Source: Caulobacter sp. (GTDB lineage: Bacteria > Pseudomonadota > Alphaproteobacteria > Caulobacterales > Caulobacteraceae). From it: DNA of 64,000 nt. The notes beneath the pieces are model-generated. The model was not told the DNA's origin, ran no database searches, and was given only the letters and a program-made list of their open reading frames with translations. Positions 5,423 through 55,658 of the stretch are shown here, one piece after another (positions within the stretch are counted from its first letter, which is position 1; every line of letters starts with the position of its first letter). The translations under genes were made by a program, and so were the position numbers. The DNA lies in assembly GCA_016125585.1 (NCBI GenBank), contig WGLL01000009.1, forward strand, positions 1 through 64,000, given 5' to 3'.

Positions 5423-5611
5423 CGGCGGCTCGTGTCTACTGCGGCAGGGAAGGGGCTTATGGCGCGAGGCGAGGGCTCAAGTCCAGACGAACCGGGGGTA
5501 TCCACACGCCTGTGGACAACCCCGCGGGTCGCGTTGACCCCTCCGGCCTGGAGGGTGTCTCGTGGCCTGCCAGCGACCGGTGAGTCGCGGCCGCCGCGGA
5601 AGGAGCCCGCC

Positions 5612-6451
5612 ATGAACCAACCTCGGGTTATTGTCGTCGGCAACGAGAAGGGCGGGGCGGGCAAATCGACCATCGCCATCCACCTGACCAGCGCCCTGCT
5701 GCACGGCGGCGCGCGGGTGGCGATCATGGATTTGGACCTGCGCCAGTCGTCCCTGGCGCGCTTTTATCGCAACCGGACCGCCTGGCTGGCCTCGGCGCCC
5801 GAGGTGTCTCTGCCCGAGCCGTTGGCCCGTCACCCGGCCCTGGACGGCGTCGCCCTGGCCCGCACCGAGCCGGCCGAGCAGATGGCCCGGTTCGAGGAGG
5901 CCTTCGCCGCCGGCGTCGCCGACGCCGACTTCCTGGTCATCGACACCCCAGGCGGCGACACGCCGCTCAGCCGCGCCGCCCATGCCCGCGCCGACCTGAT
6001 CGTCACCCCGATGAACGACAGCTTCGTCGACTTCGACATGCTGGGGCACGTCAATCCGGTCACCCTCGAGCTGGAAAAGCCCAGCCTCTATTCGGAGACG
6101 GTCTGGGAGGCCCGCAAGGCCCGCGCCATGACCGGCCAGCGGGCGCCGCTCGACTGGGTGGTCCTGCGCAACCGCCTGGCCAGCGCCGACGCCCGCAACC
6201 GCAAACGGGTCAACGACCGTCTGCTGCTGCTGGCCAAGCGGGTCGGCTTCCGCACCGGCCCTGGCCTGCGCGACCGGGTCATCTATCGCGAGCTGTTTCC
6301 CTTTGGCCTCACGGTGGCGGACCTGTCGCCGCAGGTGCGGCCGATCCCGGTCGCCCTCAGCCACGTCGCGGCGCGGCAGGAGCTGCGCAGCCTGATGCAT
6401 TCGCTGGGCCTGTCCAACTTCTCGGGCGATGTGCTGCTCGCCGCCGAATGA
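5612..6451 (+). CDS. mipZ: ParA-family division-plane positioning ATPase MipZ
   Basis: RVIVVGNEKGGAGKSTIAIHL deviant Walker A, DLDLRQ, IDTPGGD, RELFPFGLTVADLSPQVRP; ATG at 5612 within ORF 4679..6451. Confidence 0.9.
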   Translation: MNQPRVIVVGNEKGGAGKSTIAIHLTSALLHGGARVAIMDLDLRQSSLARFYRNRTAWLASAPEVSLPEPLARHPALDGVALARTEPAEQMARFEEAFAAGVADADFLVIDTPGGDTPLSRAAHARADLIVTPMNDSFVDFDMLGHVNPVTLELEKPSLYSETVWEARKARAMTGQRAPLDWVVLRNRLASADARNRKRVNDRLLLLAKRVGFRTGPGLRDRVIYRELFPFGLTVADLSPQVRPIPVALSHVAARQELRSLMHSLGLSNFSGDVLLAAE

Positions 6452-9526: not shown

Positions 9527-10296
9527 GCCCGGAAGCCCTCGAAGATGACGTTGTCGCAGAAGGGCTCCAGCCGCTCGCCTTCCTCCAGGCTGCGCACGGT
9601 CCAGGCGATGATCGGCATGCCTTGCTTCCGGTAGGCTTCAGCCTTGGCGCTGGGCAGCATTTCGGCGTGCAGGGCCAGGAAGTCCGGCCGGGCGATGGCC
9701 ACATGTTCCAGGTTGGCGAAGCTCTTGCGGATCTCGGGCGACAGATGGGTCACCGCGCCGTCGCTCCAGTCATAGCTGTCCAGCCCGCGCAGGATCTGCG
9801 GATGATGGTCGGCGAACCAGGCGTGGCTGTAGGGATTGAAGCCGATCACGCAGATGGGGCCGTTGTGGTCGAGCAGCACCTCGCTGACCCGCTTTTCCAG
9901 CGGACCGACCTCGCCGAAGGGCGTCTTCAGCTCGATATGCACCAGGGCGCGGTGCCCGACCTCGACCAGGGCCTCGGCCAGGGTCGGAATGGTCTCGTCC
10001 GTGCCGGCCAGGCGCAGGGCCTGTAACTCGGCTAGGGTATGGTCGCGAACCTTGCCTTCGGCGCCGGTCATCCGGTGGAGGCTGTAGTCGTGAAACACCA
10101 CCGCCTCCCCATCAGCGGTGATCTGGACATCCAGCTCGATGCCGTAGCCGCCGGCGCAGGCGGCCTGGAAAGCGGCCAGGCTGTTCTCGGGCGCGCCGCC
10201 CGGCGACCACAGTCCGCGGTGGGCGATCGGCGGGCTGAACAGCAGCTCCCAGGCCTGGCCGAAATCCTCCGGCTTGGGGCGCGGATGGTGTTTCAT
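9523..10296 (-). CDS. Glycerophosphodiester phosphodiesterase family protein
   Basis: IAHRGLWSPGGAPENSLAAFQAACAGGYGIELDVQITADGEAVVFHDYSLHRMT. Confidence 0.9.
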   Translation of the reverse strand: MKHHPRPKPEDFGQAWELLFSPPIAHRGLWSPGGAPENSLAAFQAACAGGYGIELDVQITADGEAVVFHDYSLHRMTGAEGKVRDHTLAELQALRLAGTDETIPTLAEALVEVGHRALVHIELKTPFGEVGPLEKRVSEVLLDHNGPICVIGFNPYSHAWFADHHPQILRGLDSYDWSDGAVTHLSPEIRKSFANLEHVAIARPDFLALHAEMLPSAKAEAYRKQGMPIIAWTVRSLEEGERLEPFCDNVIFEGFRA

Positions 10297-31504: not shown

Positions 31505-31537
31505 GACGGCCCCTGAGCATCGGGTTCAGGGGCCGTC
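31505..31537. terminator. Terminator hairpin between convergent catalase and ROK genes
   Basis: Perfect 12-bp stem GACGGCCCCTGA...TCAGGGGCCGTC; TTTT follows on the minus strand. Confidence 0.6.
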
Positions 31538-32154
31538 TCCCGGAACGTCCCACAACCACGCCGCGCCCCGCACACCCGAGGAGTCGCCGTGCTTCGCCGG
31601 CCGCACCGCGGTGGCGAAGGTGTCGCTGAACACATGGCGGCCCATCACCTCGGGAAGCCGGTCGTACAGTTCATCGATATTGCTCATCCCGCCGCCCAGC
31701 ACGATGACCTCCGGATCGAGCAGGTCGCAGACCGTCGCCAGGCCCCGGCCCAGCCGGTCGATGTAGCGGTCGAGCGCCGCGACCGCCGCCGTCTCTCCGG
31801 CGCGGGCCGCCGCGACGATGGCCGCGCCATCCAGCGCGCGTCCAGAGGCGGTCTCGTAATCCTCCATGAAGGCTGTCCCTGACACCCAGGTCTCCAGACA
31901 GTCGGTCCGGCCGCACCAGCAGGCGTGGGGCCGGGCGCGCTCCTCGGCCGTGCGCCAGGGCAGGGGCGTGTGGCCCCATTCGCCGGAGTAGCCGCCAGCC
32001 CCGGCCCAGTCCGCGCCATTCACATGCAACCCGCCGCCGCAACCGGTGCCGATGATCACCCCGAAGGCCGTGCGCGCTCCCGCCGCTGCGCCATCGGCCG
32101 CCTCTGAGATGATCAGGCAGTCGGCGTCGTTGCGCAGTCTCAGGTGCCGTCCCA
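31526..32154 (-). pseudogene. C-terminal part of an interrupted ROK-family sugar kinase
   Basis: ERVMGRHLRLRNDADCL...FGVIIGTGCGGGLHVNG...CWCGRTDCLETWVSG...EVIVLGGGMSNIDELY; N-terminal half lies at 38375..38663 beyond the element. Confidence 0.9.
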
Positions 32155-32223
32155 TCACCCGCTCCAAATCTTTGGATTCCAATAAATACCTGAAATATCA
32201 GGGCAAAAATCACCGATTTTTGT

Positions 32224-32242
32224 CTGTGCAGGTATTGTGCAG
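32224..32242 (+). promoter_or_regulatory. Candidate integrase arm-type sites (left end)
   Basis: CTGTGCAGgtaTTGTGCAG, 11-bp spacing, matching pairs near the right end. Confidence 0.45.
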
Positions 32243-32338
32243 AAAAATTTGCGGAATCGTCGGCAGCACGGCACACGCAATTTCTAGCATTGAACGCTTC
32301 AAACGGAATCGGGCGGGGTTCCGGGGCTTGGGGCGGAA

Positions 32339-32368
32339 GGGAAATCCGCGCTCTCGGCGCGGTTTCCC
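32339..32368 (-). terminator. Stem-loop downstream of the leftmost element gene
   Basis: GGGAAATCCGCGC / GCGCGGTTTCCC inverted repeat; no clear U-tract. Confidence 0.4.
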
Positions 32369-32372
32369 ATTC

Positions 32373-32678
32373 TTAGAATAGTTCGCCTTGGCGGCTCTTG
32401 GCGGCATATGCGCGCCATTCGGGCTTTGTCGCCTCCTCGTCCAGCCATGCGATGATCTGCGCCACCACGTCGCCGCCGTTGGCTTCAACGGTGCCGCAAG
32501 GGTGGTAGTGCGACTTGTAGCCCGTTTCGGTGATTGGCAGCGGCGCGCGTGGCGGCTGGATGCTTTCGATCTCAAGATGGGCGATCACGCCTCCCCAACT
32601 ACGGGGGACATAGGTTGCCTCGATTTCGATGCCTTCCCAATGAAAGCGGTATGACTGCGATGGATGCATGGTCAGCAC
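32373..32678 (-). CDS. Hypothetical protein downstream of ardA
   Basis: 101-aa ORF overlapping the ardA stop; YRFHWEGIEIEATYVPRSWGGVIAHLEIES; no family recognised. Confidence 0.65.
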   Translation of the reverse strand: MLTMHPSQSYRFHWEGIEIEATYVPRSWGGVIAHLEIESIQPPRAPLPITETGYKSHYHPCGTVEANGGDVVAQIIAWLDEEATKPEWRAYAAKSRQGELF

Positions 32679-33202
32679 CCCGCAAACACATGAACAGCGT
32701 CATGTGCGGTTTGAATGGTGAAAAGGTCGCCATTGAGTTCGCAATCCCGCGCCATCGCTTGCCAGTCGATATAATAACGCAGGCTCTGCGGAATCGCGGT
32801 GGTTTCCTCGGTGATGTCCCGCACGTAGTCGGCAAGGCTCTGATACTGCCCAAGGTGGCGATCATCGAGCGCGCTGCGCGCCTCGTCCAAATCGCCGCAA
32901 AAGTGGTCGATCAATTCCGCGCCAAGCGCGCCATGCTCTGCGATGAACGCGGCCAGCTCGGCAACGCGCTCAAAGCTGTCATATTCGTTGATGCGAATAG
33001 AGGCGAAGCCCTCATAATCATGGATCGCCCATTCTTCCGCGTCGGGGATTGGCGACTTCGCCAGCATGTCGCGGGTTGCCTCCCACATCTGCCAAGCGTC
33101 GGTTGCCTCAATCCATGCACCATGCAGGATGCCGTTATTGTAGGCCGCAAGGCAGGCCACATAGATGCGGGGTTGTTCGGTTTGGGGATGGTGTGTTTTC
33201 AT
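32672..33202 (-). CDS. ardA: Antirestriction protein ArdA
   Basis: RIYVACLAAYNNGILHGAWIEATD...EEWAIHDYEGF...VAELAAFIAEHG...LADYVRDITEET...YIDWQAMARDCELNGDLFTIQ. Confidence 0.9.
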   Translation of the reverse strand: MKTHHPQTEQPRIYVACLAAYNNGILHGAWIEATDAWQMWEATRDMLAKSPIPDAEEWAIHDYEGFASIRINEYDSFERVAELAAFIAEHGALGAELIDHFCGDLDEARSALDDRHLGQYQSLADYVRDITEETTAIPQSLRYYIDWQAMARDCELNGDLFTIQTAHDAVHVFAGC

Positions 33203-33382
33203 GGTTCTGCCCTCCTTTGGCAGCGGGTTTCAGATGCGTTTCTGAAATCCTGCCTCGTGGCGAACAGCGGGGGGCAAGCGGGAAGCACCTTCGCGGGGAA
33301 CCGGCTGCACGGAGCGCACGCGGAGGAAGCTGGGCGGAAGGTGCTTGCAAGCGCGCTAGGGGCAGCGCCCCAGCCTTATGCG

Positions 33383-34210
33383 TCAGGGATCGTAACCCGA
33401 ATGGGCGGAAACCGCCGCGTGGGTTCCGTCGCGCCAGCGATAAAGCCCGGTCCGAAGGGGACGCCCGAGTAATCTTGGTATCGAAGCCTCCGCTTCTCCT
33501 TCTGGTGTTGCCGCATAGGCACGGCCAACGGTGAGCGCATGGCGCATGAGGTTGGCGGCCATGTCGGGCCAGAAGGTATCGCCCTGTGCCCCGCCGACCT
33601 GTGCGAGAACCGAACGCAGGACGGCAGCGACGTGGCTGGGTGCGAGGCTAGCGGTGATGTTCACGCCAAGGTCGCCCGTGCCTGTGCCGATGCGCAGCAC
33701 GTCGCCCGAACGCCCTGCGGCGGCGGCGATCTTCTCGGCGTCGTGCCACAGCACGCCCTTGGCGTCGGTGATATATGCACCGCACTCCGGCTCTGCGAAT
33801 ACCTGCCGCAGCAGTGGTTTCAGAATGGCCGTGGTCTTGCCGTCGCCGGTGCCGCCGAACACCAGCAGGTGCTGGAACAGGGACTCACCATCAAGAGCGA
33901 GGGCTTGCCCCTTGCTTGGAGCTGCCATGTCACCGCGCACGCGCAAGGTGCCCGTGCCCTTGCCGATGTGAAACAACGGCGCTTCTGCCAGATAGTCGGT
34001 GGCATGGGCCACCTGTCGCACATAGCCAGCGCGGGCGATCTCTCGCGCTTCGGCACGAAACGGCCAGCGCACATGCGCATCCTTGGACAGCACTTCATAG
34101 GGTGCTGATGCTTCGCGCCGCCAATGCTCAATGGCGGCGATGGCGACAAGGATGGCCGCATCATGGCCGATCTGCGCAGCATGGGTCAGTCGGTCTTTCT
34201 CAACCCGCAT
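33383..34210 (-). pseudogene. Truncated conjugative coupling ATPase (VirD4/TraG-like) fragment
   Basis: 275 aa with LLVFGGTGDGKTTAILKPLLRQVF Walker A and YITDAKGVLWHDA; ends ~145 aa later, before a Walker B region normally present. Confidence 0.65.
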
Positions 34211-34423
34211 ATCTATGCTTCACTGCAAAACATCGACGCTGCAATCCAGCGTCTGCAACAGCAGCCCAAGCCGCGTGGGCCAAAGCCGCCGGGATTCTAA
34301 GGGGTGCGCTAGTCCTCGCAGACATTGCCAGCTCATTTGATATATCAGTAATTTCAATCAGATAACAAAGGTCGTATGGCGAGCCACCTTGCCTCCGACG
34401 CCTCTCTGTGGCAGAATTGAACT

Positions 34424-34720
34424 ATGGAACGAGAGGTCGCATTGGCTCGGTTGAGGCCGTTGGAACAAAGGCTGCGCCAGCAAGGCGTTTCGGCCCTCTA
34501 TCTCTTTGGTTCTACGGCGCGCGGCGAGGCCGACGATAAATCGGACATTGATCTGCTTTTCGAGTATGTGCCGGATCGCGGGTTTAGCTTGTTCGATCAG
34601 GCCGGGCTTCAAGTAGAGCTTTCAGAGCTTCTGAATACGAAGGTGGATTTCATTCCCCGGAGAGGGTTACGTGATAGGGTCAGACAGCGCGTAGAAGCTG
34701 ATATGGTTCAGGTCTTTTAA
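34424..34720 (+). CDS. MNT-domain nucleotidyltransferase antitoxin (MntA-like)
   Basis: LYLFGSTARGEADDKSDIDLLFEY = GSX10DXD motif of MntA antitoxins; TAATG-coupled to the downstream HEPN gene. Confidence 0.88.
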   Translation: MEREVALARLRPLEQRLRQQGVSALYLFGSTARGEADDKSDIDLLFEYVPDRGFSLFDQAGLQVELSELLNTKVDFIPRRGLRDRVRQRVEADMVQVF

Positions 34721-35094
34721 TGAGCCGCGACCTGAGCGATAACTTTGACAATCTCCAAGTGCTGATTCAGCGCATAGAGGACGGTTTGAAGGATAGGTCC
34801 TATGAGGATTATCTGAATGACCAAGACCTGCAAGATGCGACCACATATCGTCTATCAATGCTCGGGGAGATCACGGGCAAGCTGCCTGACGATGTGAAAG
34901 AACGCCACCCAGGCATACCTTGGAATAAGATACGCGGTTTAAGGAACGTCGCCAGCCACGACTATTTCAGCATTATGCCTGATATGGTGTGGGAAGGAAC
35001 GCGGTCGCTGGAGCCTATCAAGCAAATGATCCGCGAGGAACTAGTGCGCATCGAAGCGGAGCAACGCGAGCGCGACGGTGGGCGTAGGCGCTGA
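34720..35094 (+). CDS. HEPN-domain (DUF86) HepT-like RNase toxin
   Basis: GLRNVASHDYFSI contains RX4HXY; start overlaps the MNT stop. Confidence 0.87.
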   Translation: MSRDLSDNFDNLQVLIQRIEDGLKDRSYEDYLNDQDLQDATTYRLSMLGEITGKLPDDVKERHPGIPWNKIRGLRNVASHDYFSIMPDMVWEGTRSLEPIKQMIREELVRIEAEQRERDGGRRR

Positions 35095-35136
35095 CGGATT
35101 TCCGATGCGCAGCATGGCGGCGCGGAACAGGAAAGC

Positions 35137-35505
35137 ATGGAGCAATGGATAGAGGCTCAAGACTTCATCGCCGCTGACGTGATCCGCTGGAAAGAAGGCG
35201 TGTTTCACAACCGCCGCAAAGGCAAGGCGCTTCGCATAGGCGAGCGTCAGGTTGCCGCCGAGGTGCTGGAACGTGGTGAGGATGGTTGGATAAAGCTGCT
35301 CGTGCGAGGCTGCGCCATTACAAAAGATGAGGCTGCCGGAAAAACTGTTCAGACGCTCAAGGCAGGCGAACAGATAAGGCGCGCCATTAAAACGGTGTTA
35401 CGCGGCAAGGTCGAACGGTTGCTCTGGGACGATGAAACCGCTCGGGCGGCGGTGGTCGCAAGTAATATAGAAAGGTCGCGCTTTGCTGCTGAGGAATATG
35501 AATGA
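35137..35505 (+). CDS. Hypothetical protein translationally coupled to chrA
   Basis: 122-aa ORF MEQWIEAQDFIAADVIRWKEGVFHNRR...; stop overlaps the chrA start (ATGA at 35502-35505). Confidence 0.65.
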   Translation: MEQWIEAQDFIAADVIRWKEGVFHNRRKGKALRIGERQVAAEVLERGEDGWIKLLVRGCAITKDEAAGKTVQTLKAGEQIRRAIKTVLRGKVERLLWDDETARAAVVASNIERSRFAAEEYE

Positions 35506-36689
35506 CACCAAATTCACCTAGAGAAGTTTTTCAGGTATTTCTTAAACTAGGACTAACGTCGTTTGGTGGCCCAATCGCCCACCTCGGATATTTCCGCGAT
35601 GAGTTAGTTTTGAAGCGGCGATGGCTTGACGAAGCAGAATACGCCGACCTTGTCGCTTTGTGCCAATTTCTGCCGGGGCCTGCTTCGAGCCAAGTTGGGT
35701 TTGCTCTTGGCCTTGGTCGTGCTGGGTGGCGCGGTGCCTTGGCCGCATGGACAGGCTTCACACTGCCTTCCGCACTCGTGTTATTGGCGTTTGCACACGG
35801 CGCTTCACTTTTGAGTGGTGGTTACGGCGAGGCAGTTACGCACGGGCTTAAGCTCGTGGCCGTCGCGATTGTGGCGCAGGCTGTCGTAGGAATGGCGCGC
35901 GCACTGACGCCAGATTTTCGACGGGCGTCTATAGCCGTTGTCGCCCTACTTTTTGTGGTGATCGTAGGCGGCGCGATAGGTCAGATCGGCGCTATCGTGT
36001 TAGGCGGTGCGCTAGGGCTTGTGTTCTGCCGGAATTTGGCGTCGAGCGTCGCGGGTAGGCTGCCGTTCGGCGTGTCGCGTCGTCTTGGAATGACCTGCCT
36101 CGTTACGTTCGCACTATTATTGCTGACGCTTCCACTTGCCTCCTTATCAACGGATAACGGAAATCTGGCGTTGGCTGACACCTTTTATCGCGCGGGCGCT
36201 CTGGTTTTTGGAGGCGGTCATGTCGTTCTACCCTTACTTCAAGCAGGCGTTGTTCAGACGGGCTGGGCGACCAATGACGCATTTCTAGCCGGATACGGTG
36301 CTGCACAAGCGGTTCCGGGTCCGCTTTTTACCTTCGCGGCATACCTTGGTGCCGTGATCCGCCCTGAGGGGTTCGGGGTCGTTGGCGCGGCGCTGGCGCT
36401 CTTTGCTGTTTTCGTTCCCGGATTTCTTCTGCTGGTCGGCGTGATACCATTTTGGGATACATTCCGCACAACACCTGCGGCGCAAGCCGCCATGAAAGGC
36501 ACAAATGCAGCGGTCGTTGGTATTCTCACTGCGGCACTGTATAATCCGATATGGACGAATGCGATATCCAAGCCAGCGGATATACTGATCTCGCTCGCTG
36601 GGCTTGCGGCGCTGACCTATGGGCGTATTGCTCCTGCCATTGTGGTGACCTGCATCGTTCTAGCATCAGTCCTCATTCAAGCGTTCTAA
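35502..36689 (+). CDS. chrA: CHR-family chromate efflux transporter
   Basis: 395 aa; FLKLGLTSFGGPIAHLGYFRDELVLKRRWLDEAEYADLVALCQFLPGPASSQVGFALG, second half FGGGHVVLPLLQ..GYGAAQAVPGPLFTFAAYLG. Confidence 0.9.
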   Translation: MTPNSPREVFQVFLKLGLTSFGGPIAHLGYFRDELVLKRRWLDEAEYADLVALCQFLPGPASSQVGFALGLGRAGWRGALAAWTGFTLPSALVLLAFAHGASLLSGGYGEAVTHGLKLVAVAIVAQAVVGMARALTPDFRRASIAVVALLFVVIVGGAIGQIGAIVLGGALGLVFCRNLASSVAGRLPFGVSRRLGMTCLVTFALLLLTLPLASLSTDNGNLALADTFYRAGALVFGGGHVVLPLLQAGVVQTGWATNDAFLAGYGAAQAVPGPLFTFAAYLGAVIRPEGFGVVGAALALFAVFVPGFLLLVGVIPFWDTFRTTPAAQAAMKGTNAAVVGILTAALYNPIWTNAISKPADILISLAGLAALTYGRIAPAIVVTCIVLASVLIQAF

Positions 36690-36750
36690 GTCTGCCGTAA
36701 CTCTGCCCATTGAGCAAACAAAAGGGCGATGGTTGTCTCCCTTTGCAAGT

Positions 36751-36952
36751 CCTGCCCTGAAAATTGCCAGCGGCAACGGGCAGGTAGAAGGCGGCATGGG
36801 GGCCGCGTCGAACTCGACGCAGCTTGATTCCCCAAACCGCCAGCCGGTTCACAATCGAGAAGCGCCAGCGGCGCATTGTGAATCCGGCAGAACGCAAGGC
36901 TTGAAGCATCGGCAACCGGACCCGGTTGCTGGCTCGATGCCCGCCTAGCGTT
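36751..36952. other. Array of four consecutive hairpins (apparent duplicated two-hairpin module)
   Basis: H1 36751-36784, H2 36790-36841, H3 36844-36887, H4 36891-36952; loops AGC, AC, AGC, AC; see findings. Confidence 0.7.
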
Positions 36953-38240
36953 TGGGTCGCGACGGCTTATCCGTCTGCTTGGCCTTGATGGACTCCACGG
37001 CTTTCGCCTTGGCTTCGAGCTTGTCGATTTCCTCGTTCATTTCATTATGCATGGCGTCCCATCCGCCAATGCCCATCAACACGCGGTCGGCGTGCTTGAT
37101 GGTGTTCACATGCCCATAGTGCTGTTCGATCATTTTGACTGACGTGCCCATCTGCTGGGCGAGAATATAAACATCGACACCTGCGGACAGTCGCAGGGTG
37201 GCGTAGGTATGACGGAAACAATATGTCGTGCGTGGAATCCCGCTCGGTCCATCGCGAAGGTCGGTATATTTTAGCAGTTCTTCGACAGTATCACGGTAGA
37301 GCCATTTGGCGGGTTTGCCGTTGATGATCGTGAATACGTGATCGTCCTGCTTGGTCGCCTTGGACAGCTCCCGCACGCGATCAAGATATTTTCCGACGCT
37401 GATCGGAGCGATGAGTTTGCGGGTTTTACCTTTGCCCTGAACATAGAGGACAAGGATTTCCTGTCCGTCCTTGTCCTTGGCAGTTGTGATGTCCCGCCAG
37501 CGTAGGTTCTTTGCCTCGGGCGGGCGCATCCCTGTGTTGCACATGATGAGGATGAAGTTGTAGCAGATTTGGCGATACCAGACGCCCTGCGGCGTGGTCG
37601 CCTCTTTCATCCATTTGCGCCCCTTCGTGTGCAGCTTGCGGTATTCCTCAAGCGTGAACTCGTCGCGGCGGTTGGATTTCAGCTTTGGCATGCCTTCAAA
37701 GCGGTGGTGCGCGGGCACATACCGCTTGCTGATAGCGAAATTCATAATGGCAGCGAAAATGGTCATCTCGATGCGGATGGTGGAATCGCTGATGACGCCT
37801 TTGCGACGGCCTTCGCCGTTTTCCCGTCGCCACAGCGGATAGTCGGCCCAGCGCTCCTGCGTCACCAGATGAATCTGTGTGCTGCCGACATAAGCCTTAA
37901 GCGGGCCGTCGATCTTGCTTCTGATATTTCTTGAGCGGGCTTTGCTGACCTCGCCTGCGTTAGCGCGGCGCTGCTGGGCGTCGGCATATTCCTCTGCCAC
38001 CTGCAAAAAGGGGCGATTGAATACCGGAACGTCGTGCTTCACCCGAAAACGAATATCGGCATACTCGTCTAGCGCTCGGTCACGCGCCGCCTGCTTGTCA
38101 GCCGTGCGGAGCGAGATTGTCTTGTAGCGGTCCTCGTTCTGGATTCTGACACGGCAATAGTAGTTGTCGTGCCCGACATCGCCGCGCCGGAAGATAATGA
38201 GGCCGGGCTTGACCTGCTCTTTATCGACGATGAAACTCAT
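36945..38240 (-). CDS. int: Tyrosine-type site-specific recombinase/integrase
   Basis: 431 aa; NTGMRPPEAKNLRW (box I Arg), TTYCFRHTYATLRLSAGVDVYILAQQMGTSVKMIEQHYGH (HxxR...Y). Confidence 0.93.
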   Translation of the reverse strand: MSFIVDKEQVKPGLIIFRRGDVGHDNYYCRVRIQNEDRYKTISLRTADKQAARDRALDEYADIRFRVKHDVPVFNRPFLQVAEEYADAQQRRANAGEVSKARSRNIRSKIDGPLKAYVGSTQIHLVTQERWADYPLWRRENGEGRRKGVISDSTIRIEMTIFAAIMNFAISKRYVPAHHRFEGMPKLKSNRRDEFTLEEYRKLHTKGRKWMKEATTPQGVWYRQICYNFILIMCNTGMRPPEAKNLRWRDITTAKDKDGQEILVLYVQGKGKTRKLIAPISVGKYLDRVRELSKATKQDDHVFTIINGKPAKWLYRDTVEELLKYTDLRDGPSGIPRTTYCFRHTYATLRLSAGVDVYILAQQMGTSVKMIEQHYGHVNTIKHADRVLMGIGGWDAMHNEMNEEIDKLEAKAKAVESIKAKQTDKPSRPKR

Positions 38241-38254
38241 TTCCCTACTTCCTA

Positions 38255-38323
38255 CTGTGCAGAAACTGTGCAGAATAGCGGGGTAAGCCTTTGATTCCCC
38301 GTGCCTGTGCAGGTTCTGTGTAG
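38255..38323 (+). promoter_or_regulatory. Candidate integrase arm-type sites upstream of int (right end)
   Basis: CTGTGCAG at 38255 and 38266 (11 bp apart), CTGTGCAG at 38305 and CTGTGTAG at 38316 (11 bp apart). Confidence 0.45.
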
Positions 38324-38374
38324 GCTATTATAACAAAAAATAGTGAATAATTGTAGTGGTTTATTGGAATACCT

Positions 38375-38663
38375 TCACCCGCTCCATGTCGACCGGCAGC
38401 GGACGATCATTGAGCCAGAAGCTGTTGGCGTTGCGCGACAGGCCGGTGCGCGGCGAGATCGAGCCCGGAATGCCGACCCCGACCCGGTCGACCCTGACCC
38501 CGGCCTGGCGTTCGGCCTCCTCGACGACCTGACGCGCCACTTCCAGCGAGTCCTCGTAGACCCGCGGATTGGGCAGGCGCACCCGGGCGACGAATCGCCC
38601 TTCGCCGTCGAGCGCGGCCGCCTCGATCTTGGTGCCCCCGAAGTCCACGCCGATCCGGATCAT
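38375..38663 (-). pseudogene. N-terminal part of the interrupted ROK-family sugar kinase
   Basis: [34 protein letters not shown]...GVGIPGSISPRTGLSRNANSFWLNDRPLPVDMERV, then runs into element sequence (KVFQ stop). Confidence 0.9.
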
Positions 38664-54181: not shown

Positions 54182-55658
54182 GCGCCTCGGCCCCCTGGCG
54201 CGTCACCCGCAGCAGTTCCTCGACGGTCGTTGTTCCCTCGGCCACCAGCGCGCGGGCCGCCACGGTCATGTCGCCGCCCTGGTCGCGACCGATCGCGGCG
54301 ATGGCCTGTTCGTCGGCGCCGTTGGCGATCATGCCGCGCACCGCGTCATCGATCCGGATGGCCTCATAGACCCCGACCCGGCCGACATAGCCGGTCTGGT
54401 TGCAGGCGGGGCACCCCCGGGCGCGCCACACCGTCTGCCCCTCGGCCAGTCCCGCCAGCCGGGCGGCGGCGGCGTCGGCGGCGACCGGCTCGCGACATTG
54501 CGGACAGAGCCGGCGGACCAGCCGCTGGGCCAGCACCATCCGCAGGGTCGAGGCCAGCAGGAAGGGCTCGACCCCCATGTCCCGCAAGCGCGTCACCGCG
54601 CCGGCGGCGTCGTTGGTGTGGACCGTGGACAGCACCAGATGGCCGGTCAGGCTGGCCTGGACCGCGATCTGGGCGGTCTCGCTGTCGCGGATCTCGCCGA
54701 CCATCACCACGTCGGGGTCCTGGCGCAGAATGGCCCGCAGGCCGGCGGCGAAGGTCATGCCGACCCGGGTGTTGACCTGGGTCTGGCCGACGCCGTGGAT
54801 GGCGTATTCGACCGGGTCCTCGATGGTCAGGATGTTGCGGGTCTGGTCGTTGAGCAGGCCAAGCCCGCCATAGAGGGTGGTGGTCTTGCCCGAGCCGGTC
54901 GGGCCGGTGACCAGGATGATGCCGTGCGGCTCGCGCACCGCCGCCTCGAACTGGCGCAGCAGGGCCGGGGCCATGCCCAGCTCCTCCAGCCGAAGCCCGG
55001 CCTGGTCCTTGTCGAGGATCCGCAGCACCACCCGCTCGCCGACCCGCGCCGGCAGGGTCGAGACCCGCACGTCCAGCGCCTTGCCGCCCAGGGTCAGGGA
55101 GATGCGGCCGTCCTGCGGCAGCCGCTTCTCGGCGATGTCCAGCCGGGCCATGACCTTGATCCGCGAGACCAGCAGCGGCGCGATCCGCTGCGGCAGGCTC
55201 AGCATCTCGCGCAGCACCCCGTCGATGCGGAACCGCACGGTGACCGACTGCTCATAGGGCTCGACATGGATGTCGGAGGCGCCCAGCCTGGCGGCCTCGG
55301 CGATCAGGCCGTTGATCAGCCGGATCACCGGCGCCTCGTCCTGCGGGTCCAGCAGGTCGGCGGTGGCCGGCAGGTCGTCCAGCAGTCCGTCCAGGCCGCC
55401 CGCCATCTCGACGCTGTCGGCGCTCGAGGCGGCCAGGCCCTCGCCGGCATAGACTTCCGAAAACCGCCGCTCGAAGGCAGGGATCGCCAGGGTCTCGATG
55501 GCCAGCGGCCGGCCCAGCACCCGCCGCGCCTCGACCAGGGCGGCCGGATCAGCCCCCTCGCGCAGGGCCACCCGGGCGGTGTCGCCAAGCTCGAGCAGCA
55601 GGACGCCCGCGCGCTTGGCGAAGCCGTAGTTCAGGGCGGGTTCGGCCAGGGTGGTCAT
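54168..55658 (-). CDS. gspE: Type II secretion ATPase E
   Basis: GPTGSGKTTTLYGGL, EDPVEYAIHGVGQTQVN, tetracysteine CPQC...CPAC. Confidence 0.95.
   Translation of the reverse strand: MTTLAEPALNYGFAKRAGVLLLELGDTARVALREGADPAALVEARRVLGRPLAIETLAIPAFERRFSEVYAGEGLAASSADSVEMAGGLDGLLDDLPATADLLDPQDEAPVIRLINGLIAEAARLGASDIHVEPYEQSVTVRFRIDGVLREMLSLPQRIAPLLVSRIKVMARLDIAEKRLPQDGRISLTLGGKALDVRVSTLPARVGERVVLRILDKDQAGLRLEELGMAPALLRQFEAAVREPHGIILVTGPTGSGKTTTLYGGLGLLNDQTRNILTIEDPVEYAIHGVGQTQVNTRVGMTFAAGLRAILRQDPDVVMVGEIRDSETAQIAVQASLTGHLVLSTVHTNDAAGAVTRLRDMGVEPFLLASTLRMVLAQRLVRRLCPQCREPVAADAAAARLAGLAEGQTVWRARGCPACNQTGYVGRVGVYEAIRIDDAVRGMIANGADEQAIAAIGRDQGGDMTVAARALVAEGTTTVEELLRVTRQGAEAHGGV

What the first reader, a model, noticed from the sequence alone, without database searches (positions are those of the whole stretch)
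32155..38386. Integrative element captured inside a ROK kinase gene; in-silico excision restores the gene exactly
A 12-bp direct repeat TCACCCGCTCCA occurs at 32155-32166 and 38375-38386. The ROK N-terminus ([16 protein letters not shown]...VDMERV) is on the right and the C-terminus (...ERVMGRHLRLRNDADCL...VLGGGMSNIDELY) on the left. Removing 6220 bp (6220 mod 3 = 1) brings both fragments into one 918-bp, 305-aa reading frame, a normal ROK length. The attB is therefore a protein-coding gene rather than a tRNA, and integration truncates the kinase to 100 aa instead of regenerating it. Occupancy could act as an on/off switch for a sugar-kinase function.
Basis: partly seen in the sequence, partly recalled or inferred. 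Interest (0 to 1): 0.8.

Follow-up and report, generated by a model that had tools for sequence, protein, structure and literature searches.

The report
Mobile element misplaced into sugar-kinase gene
A small mobile DNA element from a family that normally inserts at the end of a glycine tRNA gene has here inserted into a sugar-kinase gene that contains a look-alike of that tRNA end, cutting the kinase in two; this is a clear but ordinary case of a known kind of off-target insertion.

Summary
A 12-bp repeat, TCACCCGCTCCA, flanks a 6.2-kb element at 32155-38386 that splits a ROK gene. Joining the flanks gives one 305-aa frame, nearest to fructokinase. Intact relatives in the same genus, one of them syntenic, bridge the junction exactly.

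The reading needs correcting. The 12 bp is the 3' end of a tRNA-Gly gene. In 31 genome loci with 83-99% identical integrases, the same core (imperfect in a few) lies about 140 bp upstream of int beside unrelated flanks. In all eight relatives with both ends resolved, the far end is a tRNA-Gly gene (one has only the tRNA's 3' part). The family is a tRNA-Gly-targeting integrative mobilizable element with relaxase and coupling protein. The window copy is a deletion derivative: no relaxase, a fused coupling-protein fragment, and chrA, MNT/HEPN and ardA.

All three tRNA-Gly genes of this host are unoccupied and diverged (2, 3 and 5 mismatches to the canonical 17-bp target). The ROK site has one mismatch, the best match in the 3.96-Mb genome. 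Secondary-site integration after transfer from a sphingomonad-like donor explains this. Nothing supports a regulatory on/off switch. Excision was not testable.

The parts
38361..38663 (-). N-terminal ROK fragment (100 aa, of which the last few residues are read from the element)
   Evidence: Pfam ROK profile 2-93; joined frame
31526..32173 (-). C-terminal ROK fragment; carries the Asn-Asp of RLRNDADC, so phosphate-binding and catalytic parts are separated
   Evidence: Pfam ROK profile 90-291; role of the Asp is established knowledge of ROK kinases
38375..38386 (+). integrase-proximal copy of the 12-bp core (attR), TCACCCGCTCCA
   Evidence: same core about 140 bp upstream of int in related loci
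32155..32166 (+). integrase-distal copy of the core (attL); with 5 bp more, TCCCATCACCCGCTCCA (32150-32166) is the former attB and has 1 mismatch to the tRNA-Gly target
36945..38240 (-). tyrosine integrase, 431 aa, intact, up to 99% identical to integrases of tRNA-Gly-integrated elements
   Evidence: Pfam PF00589; alignment around the catalytic region
35502..36689 (+). chrA, chromate efflux transporter (cargo; not found by tblastn in the related loci read)
   Evidence: PF02417 and TIGR00937 above cut-off; no hits
35137..35505 (+). 122-aa conserved backbone protein of unknown role, present in many relatives
   Evidence: tblastn hits in most related elements
34720..35094 (+). HepT-like HEPN toxin of a type VII toxin-antitoxin pair
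   Evidence: PF01934; HepT_toxin below its cut-off
34424..34720 (+). MntA-like nucleotidyltransferase antitoxin
   Evidence: PF01909; MntA_antitoxin below its cut-off
33383..34210 (-). fused fragment of a VirD4/TraG-like coupling protein left by deletions; the version in a relative is 864 aa (L127:12906-15500)
   Evidence: residues 1-19, 20-243 and 248-275 map to three separate places in relatives
32672..33202 (-). ArdA antirestriction protein
   Evidence: PF07275
32373..32678 (-). 101-aa conserved protein next to ardA in relatives
38255..38322 (.). repeated CTGTGCA/CTGTGTA motifs (4 here, 1 at 32224; 6 in the whole window): possible arm-type integrase binding sites (inferred)

Best explanation
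The element is a shrunken member of a family of integrative mobilizable elements whose tyrosine integrase normally recombines attP with the 3' end of a tRNA-Gly gene. It entered this host from outside the genus. The host's three tRNA-Gly genes differ from the canonical target, while its ROK kinase gene happened to hold TCCCATCACCCGCTCCA, one base from the tRNA-Gly end. The integrase recombined there, within the nine bases CCCGCTCCA that the resolved targets share, so the kinase gene was cut in two. Shown: exact ends, identity of the core, normal tRNA-Gly target of the family, empty and diverged host tRNA-Gly genes, intact integrase frame, deletions in the mobilization part. Inferred: direction of transfer, that target divergence caused the choice of site, and loss of kinase function.
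For: 31 genome loci with 83-99% identical integrase have the core with unrelated outer flanks. In 8 of 8 elements with both ends resolved, the distal end is tRNA-Gly sequence, and the element's last bases (TCCAAAGATT in most) match those of the window. ARAGORN calls tRNA-Gly in 7 of the 8; in G119 only the 3' part of the tRNA remains. Four of them keep GCGGGCGA on the tRNA side and GCGGGTGA on the integrase side, which places the crossover inside TGGAGCGGG. In the host genome the ROK site is the only 17-mer with at most 1 mismatch to TCCCTTCRCCCGCTCCA apart from the element's own end. Host tRNA-Gly genes have 2 (GCC), 3 (CCC) and 5 (TCC) mismatches, with ordinary sequence downstream. No integrase above 66% identity occurs in 100 relatives of the host; the nearest elements (about 95% DNA identity over int) are mostly in Sphingomonadales. 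Secondary-site use by tRNA-targeting and gene-targeting elements is established (PMC3715440, PMC2297512).
Against: The host tRNA-Gly(GCC) gene keeps the nine-base crossover segment intact, so it may still be usable and the choice of ROK may be chance. Only one occupied ROK gene is known. Only 8 of 31 related elements could be followed to both ends. A few related loci have imperfect cores and some sit in apparent coding sequence, so site choice in the family may be looser than strictly tRNA-Gly.
Confidence: 0.9

Rival explanations
1. The element is specific for ROK genes and acts as a reversible switch of kinase function.
For: Excision would restore the gene exactly; the integrase frame is intact.
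Against: Near-identical integrases sit at tRNA-Gly. No other ROK homologue among 61 genomes is interrupted at this position. No reads were available to show excision. In ICEBs1, excision from secondary sites fell to 4-15% of normal or was undetectable (PMC3715440).
Confidence: 0.03
2. A lineage of this element has shifted its specificity toward protein-coding attB sites, of which this ROK insertion is one example.
For: L073 and L083 share an insertion into the same small gene beside a xerC/D-like gene, and L077 lies in a reading frame with an HTH-like end.
Against: Those loci have only 85-87% identical integrases and broken contigs; the nearest relatives of the window element use tRNA-Gly.
Confidence: 0.05
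3. Assembly or sorting artefact that joins an element to a broken kinase gene.
For: The host genome is a 20-contig draft.
Against: Both junctions lie inside one contig, carry the exact ends seen in relatives, and the flanks join in frame.
Confidence: 0.02

Closest known systems
Secondary-site integration of ICEBs1 of Bacillus subtilis (Menard and Grossman 2013, PMC3715440)
   Same: Tyrosine-integrase element whose primary site is a tRNA gene; integrates into coding genes with near matches when the primary site is missing.
   Different: Different host and integrase; ICEBs1 is self-transmissible and its secondary sites were found after removing attB, whereas here the host's target genes are naturally diverged.
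Salmonella genomic island 1, secondary attB (PMC2297512)
   Same: Integrative mobilizable element that uses a second site when the first is absent.
   Different: Primary site is the 3' end of thdF and the second site is intergenic, not within a coding gene.
ICEclc-type elements at glycine tRNA genes (mentioned in PMC3516476)
   Same: tRNA-Gly as integration site.
   Different: ICEclc is a large self-transmissible element with, from my own knowledge, a longer P4-type integrase; not compared here.
pPDL2 of Sphingobium fuliginis (PMC3516476)
   Same: Sphingomonad integrative mobilizable element with a tRNA-end attB.
   Different: Plasmid form, seryl tRNA target; its integrase was not compared here.

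Membership tests
tRNA-Gly-targeting integrative mobilizable elements of Alphaproteobacteria (family defined here from 31 loci) | Integrase at least 80% identical, same position and orientation relative to the core | tested here: met
tRNA-Gly-targeting integrative mobilizable elements of Alphaproteobacteria (family defined here from 31 loci) | Same terminal sequences and tRNA-Gly-type core | tested here: met
tRNA-Gly-targeting integrative mobilizable elements of Alphaproteobacteria (family defined here from 31 loci) | Located at a tRNA-Gly 3' end | tested here: not met
   This copy is in a ROK gene; all 8 resolved relatives meet it
Integrative mobilizable element (functional) | Own relaxase or mobilization genes | tested here: not met
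   Relatives have a MobA/VirD2-like relaxase and one a NikA/MobC-like protein; the window copy has none
Integrative element with tyrosine integrase | Intact integrase and flanking direct repeats | tested here: met
Integrative element with tyrosine integrase | Excision and circular form | not testable with these tools
   needs reads or PCR
ROK fructokinase (NF007108) | Score above the curated cut-off | tested here: not met
   Best family hit but 383 bits against a cut-off of 443; substrate therefore only likely

The most novel reading that the evidence does not exclude
Divergence of tRNA target genes between bacterial orders forces incoming tRNA-targeting elements into the best-matching coding gene, so that host jumps of such elements routinely break specific genes; this window and the L073/L083/L077 loci would be natural examples.
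Probability: 0.2. Interest if true: 0.4.

Novelty: new member of a known kind. Interest (0 to 1): 0.25.

Why it matters
It is a clean natural example of how a tRNA-targeting element behaves in a host whose target genes have drifted: it settles at the best remaining match and breaks a metabolic gene. It also shows why a direct repeat inside a coding gene should be compared with tRNA ends before a new attB type is claimed.

Tried and rejected
ARAGORN on the first relatives (10-kb flanks) found no tRNA because the elements are longer than 10 kb or the contigs end; following the contigs solved this. The possibility that the host's tRNA-Gly genes were already occupied was rejected: all three are followed by ordinary sequence. 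Plasmid and phage collections hold no close relative. An 11-bp inverted repeat flanks the core in attP (38360-38370 and 32176-32186), but most relatives' ends do not keep it, so I give it no weight. The host's other ROK-profile hit is a glucokinase (PF02685), so glucose phosphorylation is probably unaffected; several PfkB-family kinases are present, so loss of fructokinase activity cannot be assumed.

Full report
Observation. The 12-bp repeat is real, exact and unique in the window. Removing 6220 bp gives a single 305-aa ROK frame. Pfam ROK positions 2-93 and 90-291 lie in the two halves. Same-genus relatives are uninterrupted and align across the junction; the closest (73% identity, G014) is syntenic, with the same CaiB-like and YihY-like neighbours, and carries 11 of the 12 bases at the site. 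The closest named family is fructokinase, below its curated cut-off.

Anatomy. The element is 57% GC in a 69% GC region. It encodes a tyrosine integrase (36945-38240, minus), ChrA, a 122-aa conserved protein, a HepT/MntA-like toxin-antitoxin pair, a fragment of a VirD4/TraG-like coupling protein, ArdA and a 101-aa conserved protein. No relaxase was found.

What the repeat is. A search of genome contigs with the integrase gave 31 loci at 83-99% identity, mostly Sphingomonadales and other Alphaproteobacteria. Lined up at the integrase start, nearly all keep TGGAGCGGGTGAAGG about 140 bp upstream, and sequence outside it is unrelated from locus to locus. Read on the other strand this is ...CCTTCACCCGCTCCA, the 3' end of tRNA-Gly. 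Both ends could be reached in eight genomes; each distal end is the 3' end of a tRNA-Gly gene, directly preceded by the element's own terminal sequence as in the window. ARAGORN calls an intact tRNA-Gly in seven; in G119 only the 3' part is left. In four of them the tRNA side reads GCGGGCGA and the integrase side GCGGGTGA, so the exchange happens within TGGAGCGGG.

Why the ROK gene. In the host genome the canonical 17-mer TCCCTTCRCCCGCTCCA, taken from the relatives and not from the ROK gene, has one match with one mismatch, the ROK site, apart from the element's own end; the next best have two. The host's own tRNA-Gly genes have 2, 3 and 5 mismatches and none carries an element. The GCC gene does keep the nine-base crossover segment, so divergence of the neighbouring bases is the proposed, not the proven, reason.

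What the family is. Two relatives were annotated in part: they encode a MobA/VirD2-like relaxase, a VirD4/TraG-type coupling protein, ArdC and, in one, a NikA/MobC-like protein. This is the set expected of an integrative mobilizable element; I did not scan every gene for a mating-pore system. Compared with two relatives (L124, L127) the window copy lacks about ten kilobases or more: its 275-aa coupling-protein fragment is fused from three places that lie far apart in relatives. It should be able to integrate and perhaps excise, but it has no relaxase of its own for transfer.

Function and consequence. The split separates the N-terminal phosphate-binding part of the kinase from the Asn-Asp motif, so neither half is expected to be active (inference from ROK kinases generally). 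A glucokinase and several PfkB-family kinases remain in the genome. Secondary-site integration is well described: ICEBs1 in Bacillus excised at 4-15% of normal or not detectably from secondary sites (PMC3715440), and SGI1 uses a second site when its first is deleted (PMC2297512). The on/off switch is therefore unlikely, although the identical cores at both ends here would avoid the heteroduplex problem described for some ICEBs1 sites.

Verdict. Real, precise and well explained: a known kind of event by a member of a widespread element family. I found no paper naming this family in three searches of open-access papers, which is weak evidence that it is unnamed.

Noticed in passing
L073 and L083, core near position 9859: Two different metagenome genomes have a related integrase inserted at the same place, in a small gene beside a xerC/D-like gene; contigs end before the distal junction.
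   Followed up: partly
L077, core at 5474: A related element appears inserted in an open reading frame whose end resembles a helix-turn-helix.
   Followed up: partly
L126, core at 5927: In G119 the tRNA-Gly next to the element has only its 3' part; its 5' half is replaced by other sequence.
   Followed up: no
L190 end and L191 end: In same-genus genome G030 the ROK homologue is split between two contig ends at about residue 75, with a few residues of overlap; perhaps another insertion, perhaps only an assembly break.
   Followed up: partly
L127:4214-10044: A relative carries a DNA methylase and a type III restriction-like protein as cargo.
   Followed up: no
window 54815-54913: ARAGORN reports a tRNA of undetermined type with a four-base anticodon; probably a false positive.
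   Followed up: no
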